This document shows positions 227 through 4,321 of a stretch of DNA of 64,000 nucleotides, piece by piece. Origin of the DNA: Alphaproteobacteria bacterium. Its GTDB lineage: Bacteria; Pseudomonadota; Alphaproteobacteria; Rhodobacterales; Rhodobacteraceae. Made by a program: the position numbers and the translations under genes. Position 1 is the stretch's first letter; each line of letters starts with the position of its first letter. Location: assembly GCA_030425395.1 (NCBI GenBank), contig JAUIAS010000014.1, positions 1 through 64,000 of the forward strand. The letters run 5' to 3'. Under the pieces are notes generated by a model. It saw only the letters and a list, made by a program, of their open reading frames with translations, did no database searches and was not told the DNA's origin.

Positions 227-943
227 CTATTCCCCAATACCGAAAACCATCGTTACAGTTGCGCTGTAGCTCACTTCGCCGCGCGCGACCGGGGCACCAG
301 CGTCGCGGGACATGGCCATTTCCATCATCCGGGGCTGCGGGGCGTATCCGCCATTCTCGGACAAGGTCTTGAGCGGTCCAAGGGTAACGCCCGCCGCCCC
401 GGCAAAGAGCTGCGCCCGGGCCATCGCGTCGGCCACCGCATCGCGGCGCGCGGCATCCAGCAGCGGGGCCGGATCGTCGACACCAAAGGCGATCCCCCCG
501 ATGTCATTGGCCCCGTCGCTCACCACGCTGTCGATCAGGGCACCCAACCCGTCCAGATCCCGCGCCCGCACGGTCAACCCGTTGCGCGCCACGAACCCGG
601 TGATCACGTTGACGGTATGCCCGTTCGCGGACGGCCGATTGCTCCACACAGGGTTCAGCGACAGGCCCGAGGTCTGCATATCGCGCTCTGCCACGCCCAA
701 ACCGGCCAACCGGGCGATCACCGCCGCAGTGCGCGCATTGGTCTGATCCATCGCCGCGCGCGCGGTTTTGGCCTCGCTTGTCACGCCAACGCGCAGAGTG
801 GCGATATCCGGGGCCGCGTCGGCCTGACCGGTGCCGGTCACGGTGATGGTGCGTTCGGTGATCTTGGGCATGTCGGCCTGTGCGATCAGCGGTGCCGCGA
901 TCAGTCCAAGGGCCATTGCGCAAGCTTTGAAAAATCGGGCCAT
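227..943 (-). CDS. SIMPL-domain periplasmic protein (DUF541)
   Basis: 238-residue exported protein. The first 23 residues form a typical Sec signal peptide ending AQA. The rest matches the SIMPL (DUF541) fold: an early strand TERTITVTGTGQADAAPD, then the A-T-L-R-V-G-V segment and a C-terminal strand SYSATVTMVFG. Family members include E. coli YggE, linked to reduced oxidative stress, but the biochemical role is not established. I chose the ATG at 943 because GAAGGAGA lies 5-12 bases upstream and a signal peptide follows. A longer in-frame start at 1030 would bury the signal sequence. It is divergent from the next gene, sharing about 150 bases of upstream DNA. Confidence 0.85.
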   Translation of the reverse strand: MARFFKACAMALGLIAAPLIAQADMPKITERTITVTGTGQADAAPDIATLRVGVTSEAKTARAAMDQTNARTAAVIARLAGLGVAERDMQTSGLSLNPVWSNRPSANGHTVNVITGFVARNGLTVRARDLDGLGALIDSVVSDGANDIGGIAFGVDDPAPLLDAARRDAVADAMARAQLFAGAAGVTLGPLKTLSENGGYAPQPRMMEMAMSRDAGAPVARGEVSYSATVTMVFGIGE

Positions 944-1094
944 GAGTGTCTCCTTCTGGCGATCTTCCGACAATGGGGTGGCATTTCGCTTGCAGCAAGA
1001 GTTTCGCAGTCTTTTCCTTTCCCTTGGCAAACTCCTGCTCTAAAGTGGCCTGTGCAGCGAGATCTGCATGAGGTTTGGCAAGTAACGGCATAAC

Positions 1095-3734
1095 ATGAAG
1101 CCAGTTTTCGCGCTTTCCCTGTCCTTCGAGGGCATCACCCTTCTGGTGCGCGCCGCCGGGGGCTGGAGGCGTATCGGCTCCGTTCCGCCTGAAGACGCGA
1201 ATTTCCTCAACAAAATCGCCCGGATCAAGGCTGACGCCATCGCGCTGGATCGCGGACCTTTGCGCTGCAAGGTGGTCATCCCGGACGACCAGATCCGTTA
1301 CATGACGATCGAAACCGGTGCCCAAAGCTATTACGACCGCCGCGCTGCCGCGCGATTGGCGCTGGACGGGGCAACGCCCTATGCGGTCGAAGATCTGGCC
1401 TATGACATTTGCGAGGACGGCCCGCGCACCCATGTTGCCGCTGTCGCCCGCGAAACGCTGGCCGAGGCCGAGGGGTTTTGTCTCGATCATGGGCTTGAGC
1501 CTTTGTGCTTTGTCGCCAGCCCCGGCGACGCAGGTTTTCTTGGAGAGCCGTTTTTTGCCACCGCCCGCCACGCCGAAACCGTTCTGGACAAAGGCGAAGA
1601 GGTGGAAACCGACGGCATCGCGGTTGTTGATCTGGGGCCACTGGAGGCCGCGCCGCCGCCTGCCTCTGAACCTGCGCCGCCCCCGGAGCCAGAGCCGGAA
1701 CCAGAAATCACCCCGAATTTCGTCAGCCGCCGCAAACCGGACACGGCATCCGACGGGGCAGCACCACAAGAGGCCCTTGAAAAACCGCGCCTGTCGGCAT
1801 CCGCACCGGCACAATCGCTGGTGCAATCTCTCAAAGCCACCAAAGCTGGCAAACCGCGGGTCGACGCCCCTCGCCCGGACGCGGCCGAAAAGGTAAAGTT
1901 TCCCGAGAAACTGGGCGGCGCGCCACCACCACCGCCCCGCCGCAAACCCGGTGAGAAACCCGCGCTTGAGGCATTGGCCGCGCGCAAACCTGCCCAAGAC
2001 GGCCCCGATACGGCCCCTGCCCCCGAGGCAAAGGCCCCGATTATCGACCGCGACGCGCTGGCCCGTGAAATGGCCCGCAAGGGGGCGGAACTGACCGCAA
2101 AGGCCGCCAAGGCCATCGCCGCCCGTCCCAAGGACGCCGCCGCATCGCAGGCGGCCCCCTCTCCGCGCAAGCAAGAGGCCGAACGGCTGACGGTGCTCGG
2201 GGCCCGTGCCGCGGACAAGCCCCAAGCTGTGGGCGGCAAACCGCGCGCGCTTGGCCTGATCCTGACGGTTGTCCTGTTGATCTTTATCGCCGGTGTTGCG
2301 GCGTGGTCGGCATTGTTCATGGAGGACGGGCTTGGCCGGTTCTTCCGCAGCGATGCCGAACTGGTCTCTGTCCCCGACCAACCCGCTCCGGTGCTGGCCC
2401 CGGTGGCCCAACCCGAGGCACTGGCCCAACCCAGCGCGATCCGGCCCCAATCACGCCCCGAGGTTGTCGCGGATGAAGGTATCGCTGACGCTGCGCCAAA
2501 GGACGCGGAAACGGTGGACGCGGAGACGGCGGAGGCCGTGGCCGCCGCACCTGAAAGTGCCTCTGAAACCGAAACCGAAACCGCGACCGGCCCCGAACCG
2601 GACACTGAAACCGCAGCGATTGATGAGCCGCCTGCCGAACCCGCGCCCGCCCTGAACACGGCTGAACCGGAACAACCGCCGGAGCCCGCACCTCAGGTTG
2701 CCGAAGCGCCCCCAGAGCCAGTGATTGATCCGCTGCGCGCGCCCGCATCGGGCGCGCCGATGACTCAGGAGCAGGCTCAGGCGCGCTATGCCGTGACAGG
2801 TATCTGGCCGCGCGCGCCACAAGAGCCGCAAACCCCCGGCGTGATCGAGCTGGACGATTTTTATATCGCCTCGATTGATCCCGCCACCACGATGCAGGAT
2901 GCGCTTGCCCTGCCCGTGCCGCAGGCGTCCGATCACGACCGGCCACTGAATGCGCAACCATTGCCGCCCGCGCCGGGATCATCCTTTGATCTTGGGTCCG
3001 ACGGGCGCGTGACCCCGAGCCCGGAAGGCACTCTGAGCCCCGAAGGCTTCCTTGTTTATCTTGGCCGTCCGCCGGTGGTGCCACCGCCCACCCCGGAGCG
3101 TGCCACCCCCGAACCCGCCACGACCGAGGCCCCCGCCCCCGCCACGCCGCGCATCCGCCCGCGTCAGCGACCGGGTGATCTGATCGAGGAAACCGAGCGC
3201 ACCCAGTTCGGTGGCCGCACCCGCACCGAGCTTGCCTCGCTCAGGCCGCGCCTGCGCCCCGGCGGTGCGCAGGCACAAGCGGCAGTGCAACCTCTGGTTC
3301 CCGGTGTCGATACAAATGACGCAACTGCCGAGGCGATCATCGCATCGCTGGCACCGCGCCCGCGTCCCGGCAACATCTCGTCGCTGGTCGAGGACGCCAA
3401 TCCGACGCCCGCGTCGCTGGGCAGCACGGCAGGGGCCTTGATTGCACCGCGCCCGGCACCATCCACGTCGTCGGCACCGTCCCTTCCCTCCTCGGCGTCG
3501 GTTGCCCGGCAGGCCACGGTCAAGAACGCGATCAACCTGCGGCAGGTCAATTTGATTGGGGTTTATGGTACCCCATCGGCGCGCCGCGCGCTGGTGCGCC
3601 TGCCATCGGGCCGATATCGCAAGGTGCAGGTGGGTGACCGGATTGACGGTGGTCAGGTTGTCGCCATCGGCGACAGCGAACTGCGGTATCAAAAGGGCAG
3701 CCGGAACCTGACGCTCAAGATCCCTTCGAGCTGA
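1095..3734 (+). CDS. Large single-span protein with a PilP/GspC-like C-terminal domain
   Basis: 879 residues. Residues 1-150 form a compact domain (MKPVFALSLSFEGITLLVRA) that could be an actin-like PilM/GspL-type fold; this is a weak guess. A Pro/Ala/Glu-rich segment follows, then one membrane span at about 386-410 (LGLILTVVLLIFIAGVAAW). A second long Pro/Glu-rich stretch runs to about 790. The last 65 residues (NLIGVYGTPSARRALVRLP, then VGDRIDGGQVVAIG) look like the PilP/GspC homology-region fold of type IV pilus and type II secretion inner-membrane proteins. The topology (N-terminus inside, C-terminus in the periplasm) fits. Homologues in this order are sometimes labelled 'translation initiation factor 2', probably because of the low-complexity region. 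No other pilus or secretion gene is adjacent. Confidence 0.6.
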   Translation: MKPVFALSLSFEGITLLVRAAGGWRRIGSVPPEDANFLNKIARIKADAIALDRGPLRCKVVIPDDQIRYMTIETGAQSYYDRRAAARLALDGATPYAVEDLAYDICEDGPRTHVAAVARETLAEAEGFCLDHGLEPLCFVASPGDAGFLGEPFFATARHAETVLDKGEEVETDGIAVVDLGPLEAAPPPASEPAPPPEPEPEPEITPNFVSRRKPDTASDGAAPQEALEKPRLSASAPAQSLVQSLKATKAGKPRVDAPRPDAAEKVKFPEKLGGAPPPPPRRKPGEKPALEALAARKPAQDGPDTAPAPEAKAPIIDRDALAREMARKGAELTAKAAKAIAARPKDAAASQAAPSPRKQEAERLTVLGARAADKPQAVGGKPRALGLILTVVLLIFIAGVAAWSALFMEDGLGRFFRSDAELVSVPDQPAPVLAPVAQPEALAQPSAIRPQSRPEVVADEGIADAAPKDAETVDAETAEAVAAAPESASETETETATGPEPDTETAAIDEPPAEPAPALNTAEPEQPPEPAPQVAEAPPEPVIDPLRAPASGAPMTQEQAQARYAVTGIWPRAPQEPQTPGVIELDDFYIASIDPATTMQDALALPVPQASDHDRPLNAQPLPPAPGSSFDLGSDGRVTPSPEGTLSPEGFLVYLGRPPVVPPPTPERATPEPATTEAPAPATPRIRPRQRPGDLIEETERTQFGGRTRTELASLRPRLRPGGAQAQAAVQPLVPGVDTNDATAEAIIASLAPRPRPGNISSLVEDANPTPASLGSTAGALIAPRPAPSTSSAPSLPSSASVARQATVKNAINLRQVNLIGVYGTPSARRALVRLPSGRYRKVQVGDRIDGGQVVAIGDSELRYQKGSRNLTLKIPSS

Positions 3735-3865: not shown

Positions 3866-4321
3866 ATGATGGACGAAACCGATACCAAGCTTCTGGCGGC
3901 GCTACAATCTGATGCGCATTTGACCGCGCAGGAACTGGGCGAGATGCTGAACCTGTCGGCTTCGCAGGCGGGACGGCGGCGTCAGCGGCTGGAAAGCGCG
4001 GGTATAATCGAAGGCTACTGCGCGCGGCTTGATCCGGCGCGGGTCGGATTGACGGTGCAGGGCTTTGTTCAGGTCCAGCTTGGCACCCACGGGGCTGAAC
4101 AATCGCGCAGCTTTGCGCGTCTTGTCGCCACCCGGCCTGAAATCACCAGCGCATGGACGATGACCGGTGACGCCGATTACCTGCTGCGGGTCTTTTGTCA
4201 TGATCTTGGCGCGCTGAACCGATTGATCCACGACGTTCTTCTCGCCCATCCCAGTGTCGCGCGGGTGCACAGCCAGATCGTCATGGATCAGATCAAACGC
4301 GACGCGCCGTTGCCAACCTGA
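3866..4321 (+). CDS. Lrp/AsnC-family transcriptional regulator
   Basis: 151 residues, the usual Lrp/AsnC size. Residues 1-60 are a winged-helix DNA-binding domain (DETDTKLLAALQSDAHLTAQ, then LNLSASQAGRRRQRLESAGI). Residues about 65-145 are the RAM/AsnC ligand and oligomerisation domain (VQGFVQVQLG; TGDADYLLRVF). These proteins respond to amino acids and usually control an adjacent gene. Here the downstream neighbour on the same strand is an antiporter 360 bases away, so the target is unclear. A second ATG two codons in could be the real start. Confidence 0.9.
   Translation: MMDETDTKLLAALQSDAHLTAQELGEMLNLSASQAGRRRQRLESAGIIEGYCARLDPARVGLTVQGFVQVQLGTHGAEQSRSFARLVATRPEITSAWTMTGDADYLLRVFCHDLGALNRLIHDVLLAHPSVARVHSQIVMDQIKRDAPLPT

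What the first reader, a model, noticed from the sequence alone, without database searches (positions are those of the whole stretch)
1095..3734. Long protein joining a PilM/GspL-like start to a PilP/GspC-like end
In type IV pili PilM, PilN, PilO and PilP are separate. This protein has a cytoplasmic N-terminal domain, one membrane span and a periplasmic PilP-like domain, linked by 450 Pro/Glu-rich residues long enough to cross the periplasm. It might be a single-chain bridge to a secretin-like partner, with no pilus genes nearby.
Basis: inference. Interest (0 to 1): 0.55.

Follow-up and report, generated by a model that had tools for sequence, protein, structure and literature searches.

The report
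Single-chain GspL–GspC envelope tether protein
Nearly every sampled bacterium of this window's family carries one long membrane protein that joins two parts normally found on separate proteins of a secretion machine, and some keep it although we detect no such machine in them, so it has probably been put to another use in the cell envelope.

Summary
Residues 1-160 fold like the cytoplasmic domain of GspL/PilM; residues ~816-877 fold like the GspC homology-region/PilP domain. Split versions add strong support: in two relatives of the same family the halves match separate GspL-like and GspC-like genes beside GspM.

The N-terminal profile hits 143 of 150 sampled genomes of the family. In a class-wide sample of 115 it hits three: two of this family, and one T2SS-type GspL. 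The gene stands alone: 0 of 36 fusion loci show a Tad or T2SS neighbour.

The proposed secretin bridge is not supported as the general function. Of 15 Tad-less genomes with no secretin over the cut-off, 14 keep a one-frame fusion, and 11 of those 14 show no GspE- or GspF-type match either. The window's own genome does have one secretin, in a Tad locus.

Best reading: a T2SS assembly-platform protein collapsed into one chain and repurposed as an inner-membrane, periplasm-crossing tether with unknown partners. New variant of a known kind.

The parts
1095..3734 (+). Whole gene: 879-aa GspL-cytoplasmic / GspC-HR fusion protein
   Evidence: one of 36 one-frame fusions compared (35 from relatives plus the window)
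1095..1574 (+). N-terminal GspL/PilM-like cytoplasmic domain, residues 1-160
   Evidence: AlphaFold2 model m411fecda19f9; Foldseek 5tkw 3.4e-8, 4pht_X 8.0e-8, 5eoy_A 1.4e-7; VIA Z 10.3 to 4pht_Y, rmsd 4.1, 148 aligned; profile-profile match to three GspL-like proteins, prob 99.3
1575..2246 (+). Cytoplasmic Pro/Ala/Lys-rich linker, residues 161-384, probably disordered (inference)
   Evidence: composition; length 8-532 in 36 fusions
2247..2306 (+). Single transmembrane span, residues 385-404
   Evidence: mean hydropathy 2.64 over 20 residues, the only peak over 1.6 between the two domains
2307..3455 (+). Periplasmic Pro/Ala-rich linker, residues 405-787
   Evidence: length 231-628, median 330, in 36 fusions
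2784..2909 (+). Conserved periplasmic motif 1, about residues 564-605 (TGxWxxAP ... ASIDP ... DAxALP)
   Evidence: letters shown are the majority letter in at least half of 36 fusions; TGIWPRAP starts at residue 568 and ASIDP at 592
3012..3089 (+). Conserved periplasmic motif 2, about residues 640-665 (PTxEGTxxPxG ... GxPP in the consensus; TPSPEGTLSPEG ... GRPPVVPP in the window)
   Evidence: alignment of 36 fusions (positions)
3456..3728 (+). C-terminal GspC homology-region / PilP-like domain (profile residues 788-878; fold core about 816-877)
   Evidence: TIGR03021 in 28 of 28 and PF04351 in 27 of 28 members at E<=1, best 5e-9 and 4.3e-6; VIA Z 10.1 to GspC 3oss_C, 60 residues, 1.5 A; PilP 2y4y_B Z 9.0
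227..1030 (-). Divergent SIMPL-domain (YggE-like) gene; name recalled, not from a search; a neighbour
   Evidence: divergent and adjacent or overlapping in 24 of 36 fusion loci
3866..4321 (+). Lrp/AsnC-type regulator downstream (name recalled); a neighbour, not part of the system
   Evidence: downstream on the same strand within 6 kb in 11 of 36 loci

Best explanation
The protein is a type II secretion assembly platform collapsed into one chain: a GspL-type cytoplasmic docking domain, one membrane anchor, and a GspC/PilP homology-region (HR) domain on a flexible tether of 231-628 residues, without GspM and without the periplasmic domain of GspL. I propose that it works as a permanent inner-membrane tether. 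The cytoplasmic domain docks a partner other than GspE. The tether passes the peptidoglycan. The HR domain docks a periplasmic or outer-membrane partner that need not be a secretin, and the two conserved linker motifs are further contact sites. Shown by computation: domain folds, homology to GspL-like and GspC-like proteins, one predicted span, conservation across the family, retention without detectable secretin, ATPase or platform. Inferred: topology, disorder, tethering, and the existence and nature of the partners.
For: Folds. Homology without the G008 GspL in the query: profiles of 25 rows each hit GspL-like proteins of three genomes (5.8e-17, 1.2e-15, 1.6e-14) and GspC-like proteins of two (5e-16, 7.8e-11); hhalign against the three GspL-like proteins gives prob 99.3, E 5e-20 for one comparison. 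In G017 and G077 these genes lie beside GspM (T2SSM_b over its cut-off in both), and the G077 GspL-like protein has a PilN domain over its cut-off. A hit in another family of the class also lies in a GspL-GspM-GspC-like run (names by my reading). Near-universality: 143 of 150, each from a different genus label. Independence from filament machines: no secretin over the cut-off in 15 of 21 Tad-less genomes; 14 of the 15 have a one-frame fusion; 11 of the 14 have no T2SSE or T2SSF match at E <= 0.001. No Tad or Gsp gene in 0 of 36 fusion loci, with positive controls. Constraint: the window's HR domain is up to 81% identical in other genera while linkers vary widely.
Against: No partner is identified and tethering is not shown. 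Absence of secretin, ATPase and platform rests on profile searches of partly draft genomes; a very divergent secretin would be missed, and G089 and G131 have secretin matches below the cut-off (E 0.027, 0.064). Missing N-terminal hits are commoner in Tad-less genomes (3 of 21 vs 4 of 129; Fisher p 0.057), a hint of some Tad link. The GspL-like proteins themselves match no GspL family in Pfam or NCBIfam, so their name rests on gene order, the PilN domain of one, and the fold match. Structure models used three sequences each (N-terminal mean pLDDT 68.6). The tree does not settle whether the fusion arose once.
Confidence: 0.55

Rival explanations
1. It is an unrecognised accessory part of the Tad pilus: the HR domain docks the CpaC/RcpA secretin and the GspL-like domain docks the Tad motor, giving Tad the PilM-PilP-type link it otherwise lacks.
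For: The window genome's only secretin lies with CpaB, T2SSE and T2SSF matches on C29; 129 of 150 genomes have CpaB over its cut-off; GspC-HR is known to bind the secretin GspD (PMC3169554, start of abstract in search listing); PilMNOP homologues are lacking or very rare near Tad genes (PMC6668835, passages); missing N-terminal hits are commoner without Tad, p 0.057.
Against: 17 of 21 Tad-less genomes keep a one-frame fusion; none of six Tad proteins has a BLAST match in 36 fusion loci, about 1-10 kb on each side; the published Tad alignment complex is RcpC (PMC12307814, passages).
Confidence: 0.2
2. It is a relic of a lost type II secretion system, kept for a minor regulatory or structural role in the inner membrane, with the HR domain no longer binding anything specific.
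For: Separate GspL-like and GspC-like genes survive in a few genomes; G017 and G077 (and G008, 82% complete) show no fusion.
Against: The HR domain is better conserved than the N-terminal domain, and the gene is kept in 143 of 150 genera sampled; two linker motifs are also conserved. One genome, G102, has both a fusion and T2SSE/T2SSF plus a second HR-domain ORF.
Confidence: 0.15
3. The HR domain binds N0-like (STN) domains of outer-membrane transporters other than secretins, so the protein gates or positions such a transporter.
For: Secretin N0 and the signalling domain of some TonB-dependent receptors share a fold (recalled). It would explain retention without secretin.
Confidence: 0.1

Closest known systems
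Type II secretion GspL, cytoplasmic domain (PulL, EpsL, XpsL)
   Same: N-terminal fold (Z 10.3 to 4pht_Y) and profile homology to GspL-like genes beside GspM and GspC in the same family
   Different: No periplasmic PilN/ferredoxin-like domain found; about 220 extra cytoplasmic residues before the span; no T2SS gene beside it
Type II secretion GspC / type IV pilus PilP (HR domain)
   Same: C-terminal fold (3oss_C Z 10.1, 2y4y_B Z 9.0) and family profiles TIGR03021, PF04351
   Different: The anchor is preceded by 384 residues including a GspL-type domain; kept without detectable secretin in 14 genomes
XpsCLM assembly platform (PMC11981180, passages)
   Same: The same roles by domain: ATPase docking (XpsL), membrane anchor, HR domain after a disordered stretch (XpsC)
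   Different: Three chains there, one here; no GspM domain here; ATPase and secretin not detected in many of the Tad-less carriers
Tad pilus alignment complex RcpC/CpaB (PMC12307814, passages)
   Same: Inner-membrane protein reaching the outer-membrane side
   Different: That paper finds no notable similarity of RcpC to PilN/PilO/GspL/GspM; the fusion is not beside Tad genes

Membership tests
GspL (T2SS) | Cytoplasmic actin-like GspL domain | tested here: met
   Foldseek 3.4e-8 and VIA Z 10.3 to GspL; hhalign prob 99.3 to GspL-like relatives. Pfam T2SSL itself hits only 3 of 28 members, best 7.6e-4, and not the window
GspL (T2SS) | Periplasmic PilN/ferredoxin-like domain after the span | tested here: not met
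   No Pfam family in the whole protein up to E 5; that region is Pro/Ala-rich
GspL (T2SS) | Encoded with or alongside a T2SS | tested here: not met
   Own genome: one secretin, one T2SSE and two T2SSF matches, all on C29 near CpaB; 0 of 36 fusion loci match GspD, GspE or GspM
GspC / PilP | HR/PilP beta domain | tested here: met
   VIA Z 10.1, 1.5 A over 60 residues to GspC; TIGR03021 6e-7 for the window domain, below its curated cut-off; no Foldseek match under 0.001
GspC / PilP | Span or lipid anchor near the N-terminus, no cytoplasmic domain | tested here: not met
   384 residues including a folded domain precede the span
GspC / PilP | Partner secretin in the genome | tested here: not met
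   14 of 15 secretin-less, Tad-less genomes keep the fusion; the window genome itself does have one secretin
PilM | Complete two-lobed, nucleotide-binding fold of ~350 residues | tested here: inconclusive
   Model matches PilM at Z up to 9.6 (5eou_B), but the domain is ~160 residues against ~350; nucleotide binding not tested
Tad pilus component | Always found with Tad and in or near its locus | tested here: not met
   17 of 21 Tad-less genomes have a one-frame fusion; 0 of 36 fusion loci match six Tad proteins
TonB/TolA-type periplasm-spanning protein | TonB or TolA C-terminal domain | tested here: inconclusive
   No Pfam hit; fold matches HR domains, but an unlisted family is not excluded

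The most novel reading that the evidence does not exclude
A whole bacterial family uses a single-chain GspL-GspC protein as the core of an envelope-spanning system that needs neither secretin, filament nor secretion ATPase, with an outer-membrane partner not yet known for HR domains.
Probability: 0.45. Interest if true: 0.75.

Novelty: new variant of a known kind. Interest (0 to 1): 0.6.

Why it matters
HR domains are known for binding secretins, and GspL for binding the secretion ATPase. A conserved protein that joins both, and that persists where neither partner is detected, would show that T2SS platform parts can serve another envelope function. It also gives a natural minimal system for asking what GspM and the periplasmic part of GspL are needed for, and a testable candidate for an extra Tad link in Tad-bearing strains.

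Tried and rejected
Tad-specific role: the first 61-genome sample seemed to me to show strong co-occurrence with a Tad-type secretin; the 150-genome profile sample and the follow-up did not bear it out. CpaM of Caulobacter as the counterpart: rejected, it is described as having a polysaccharide-deacetylase-like domain (PMC5182063, passages). The mBio 2026 Tad architecture paper (PMC13170226, passages) names CpaI as the bridge in Caulobacter; I did not look for CpaI here.

Sequence searches of the PDB led nowhere: phmmer of the whole protein gave one hit, 2ppx, E 0.02, in the linker; profile A1 gave five hits, designed TPR proteins first (2.2e-4), then an uncharacterised protein and centromere protein S, none GspL or PilM; profile A2 gave mitochondrial uL2m at 0.078 and 0.10 and then GspC at 0.22. 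Single-protein Pfam scan found nothing. Other families hit by A2 members: SctD/YscD 12 of 28 (best 0.0012), GspC_delta 18 of 28 (0.0011), ribosomal L2 7 of 28, T2SSC 3 of 28. Trees of both domains did not resolve the number of fusion events; in the N-terminal tree one fusion, L041, falls with the GspL-like rows with weak support. Literature: the listings (of, 15 of 571 papers were listed, 10 of 57) show no paper that describes this protein by title or abstract start; only open-licence PMC papers are searched.

Circularity: A1 contains the GspL-like row of G008 (L053), so the match to split GspL-like proteins was repeated without it (L053, L039, L041 dropped from A1; L039, L041, L043 from A2; 25 rows left in each, of which L054 and L042 come from ORFs cut by a contig end or by N). 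The counts and 42 use the uncut A1 and A2. The 36 fusions are the ORFs, in the loci in hand plus the window protein, that hold both domains in order; the loci were chosen because they had hits or lacked secretins, not at random.

Full report
The gene runs from 1095 to 3734 on the + strand and encodes 879 residues. The consensus of 28 aligned relatives starts MKPxFAL. I call the group Rhodobacteraceae: the one named relative fetched is 'Rhodobacteraceae bacterium F11138'; G handles carry only 'same family' labels, so extending the name to the sampled genomes is inference.

Folds. Alignments for structure prediction held three sequences each. In the N-terminal model (174 residues, mean pLDDT 68.6) the ten-residue blocks from 11 to 130 average 61-88. 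Its best Foldseek matches are 5tkw, a pullulanase-specific T2SS protein (PulL by recall), at 3.4e-8, GspL 4pht_X at 8.0e-8 and PilM 5eoy_A at 1.4e-7. By VIA they are GspL 4pht_Y, Z 10.3 (148 residues, 4.1 A), and EpsL 1yf5, Z 10.2 (145, 3.8 A); PilM reaches 9.6 (5eou_B), and a cell-division protein (3wt0) 7.8. The C-terminal model (89 residues, mean pLDDT 79.7) has no Foldseek match under 0.001; the best are 3jc8_Pa (PilP chain by recall) at 1.6e-3 and GspC 3oss_C at 1.2e-2. By VIA 3oss_C has Z 10.1 (60 residues, 1.5 A), PilP-type entries 8.0-9.3 (one of them, 2ivw, at rmsd 11.2), other GspC/GspB entries and a Dot/Icm chain 5.8-7.3, and unrelated rows 4.8 and below. Family profiles agree for this end: TIGR03021 (pilP) in 28 of 28 and PilP PF04351 in 27 of 28 members at E <= 1; for the window's own domain both are below the curated cut-offs. 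For the N-terminal end Pfam is weak: T2SSL in 3 of 28 members (best 7.6e-4), PilM_2 in 3 of 28.

Split relatives. A tblastn of the window protein already found short N-terminal hits in G008 and G017. In G077 the N-terminal match is a 343-residue GspL-like gene followed by GspM and a GspC-like gene. In G017 the GspL-like gene runs to the end of one contig, next to a T2SSE-type gene, and the end of another contig begins with the same sequence and continues into GspM and a GspC-like gene. In G008 the GspL-like gene is at a contig end, and another contig has GspD (TIGR02517 1.1e-125, over its cut-off), a GspK-like and a GspE-like gene. GspM is over the Pfam cut-off in both loci scanned, and the G077 GspL-like protein has a PilN domain over its cut-off. 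None of the three GspL-like proteins matches a GspL family in Pfam or NCBIfam. Profiles made without the G008 row still find all three, and the GspC-like proteins of G017 and G077. A hit outside the family, G197, is likewise in a GspL-GspM-GspC-like run (my reading of the ORFs). So the window protein corresponds to GspL's cytoplasmic domain plus GspC's HR domain.

Between the domains. Of 36 fusions, 31 have one hydrophobic peak over 1.6 between the domains and five have two; the cytoplasmic linker is 8-532 residues and the periplasmic linker 231-628, median 330. Two periplasmic segments are conserved, TGxWxxAP...ASIDP...DAxALP and PTxEGTxxPxG...GxPP, followed by RP-rich stretches. They argue against a mere spacer.

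Distribution. The N-terminal profile hits 143 of 150 genomes of the family, each with its own genus label, at 95% completeness or more. In a class-wide sample it hits 3 of 115: the window genome, G182 of the same family (843-residue frame), and G197. In one search, tblastn matched 34 of 61 genomes, none of the 24 from other families. Of the seven misses, G106, G136 and G162 have an ORF of 553-595 residues with the C-terminal domain, G111 has the C-terminal domain in a 317-residue frame, G015 and G028 have C-terminal-only ORFs of 223 and 121 residues, and G160 has neither.

Neighbours. In 36 fusion loci an O-acetylhomoserine-sulfhydrylase-like gene (name recalled) lies upstream on the same strand within 6 kb in 30, a SIMPL-type gene is divergent and adjacent or overlapping in 24, and a KefB-like gene is downstream in 19. 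BLAST with six Tad proteins of the window genome and with GspD, GspE and GspM finds nothing in any of the 36 loci (about 1-10 kb on each side), while the same queries find their own loci.

The secretin question. The window genome has one secretin, on C29 with CpaB, one T2SSE and two T2SSF matches. CpaB is over its cut-off in 129 of 150 genomes. The 21 others are 16 without a match and five that I infer from their weak E-values to be the sub-cut-off ones (G029, G068, G106, G150, G152). Of the 21, 6 have a secretin over the cut-off and 15 do not; G089 and G131 have matches below it. Of the 15, 12 have both domain profiles in one frame (G068, G079, G089, G092, G110, G116, G127, G131, G141, G150, G164, G172), G106 and G162 have both by direct search of the ORF (N-terminal 2.7e-4 and 8.2e-9 with the reduced profile), and G029 has a partial N-terminal match only. 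Of these 14, PF00437 and PF00482 have no match at E <= 0.001 in 11; G092 has one T2SSE match in a 301-residue frame, G116 one T2SSE and one marginal T2SSF match, G089 a T2SSE match under the cut-off. G068 is a single contig, G110 and G150 five contigs each, 99-100% complete. Among all 21, 17 have a one-frame fusion (the 14 plus G023, G122, G152); G014 and G082 have the domains in separate ORFs, G028 only the C-terminal end, and G029 no C-terminal match. Against this reading, missing N-terminal hits are commoner without Tad, 3 of 21 against 4 of 129, Fisher p 0.057.

Mechanism. In the published XpsCLM model the HR domain meets secretin N0 after a disordered stretch, and the cytoplasmic domain of XpsL meets the ATPase (PMC11981180, passages). 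PilMNOP homologues are lacking or very rare near Tad genes (PMC6668835, passages), and the Tad alignment complex is RcpC (PMC12307814, passages). Given retention without detectable secretin or ATPase, I take the protein to be a repurposed tether whose two end domains bind other partners. That last step is inference.

Verdict: domain reading supported, secretin role not supported as general, new variant of a known kind, interest 0.6.

Noticed in passing
G000:C78:84357-84620 (L056 8316-8621, - strand), outside the window: A second, short protein (~101 aa) with the same HR-type domain and, by eye, no span or signal lies beside purF. In 9 of 9 short-paralog loci examined (two other rows of alignment A3, L040 and L044, left out) purF is in the locus, and an SDR-type gene in 8 of 9; the queries come from one of the nine. 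An HR domain apparently in the cytoplasm is odd.
   Followed up: partly
window 227-1030 (-): A SIMPL-type gene is divergent to the fusion in 24 of 36 loci, which suggests a shared promoter region and perhaps a shared function.
   Followed up: partly
L039 8860-10343 (G014) and L146 9615-10888 (G082): The two domains lie in separate ORFs; both genomes lack a CpaB match. Broken genes or true two-gene forms; not resolved.
   Followed up: no
L145 9574-10443 (-) (G163:C27): A second, short N-terminal-domain ORF near a transposase-like ORF (my reading) in a genome that also has the full fusion; looks like a fragment.
   Followed up: no
L144 8774-10961 (G077); L147 and L040 (G017): GspL-like, GspM and GspC-like gene runs in genomes where no fusion was found; possible ancestral state or replacement.
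   Followed up: partly
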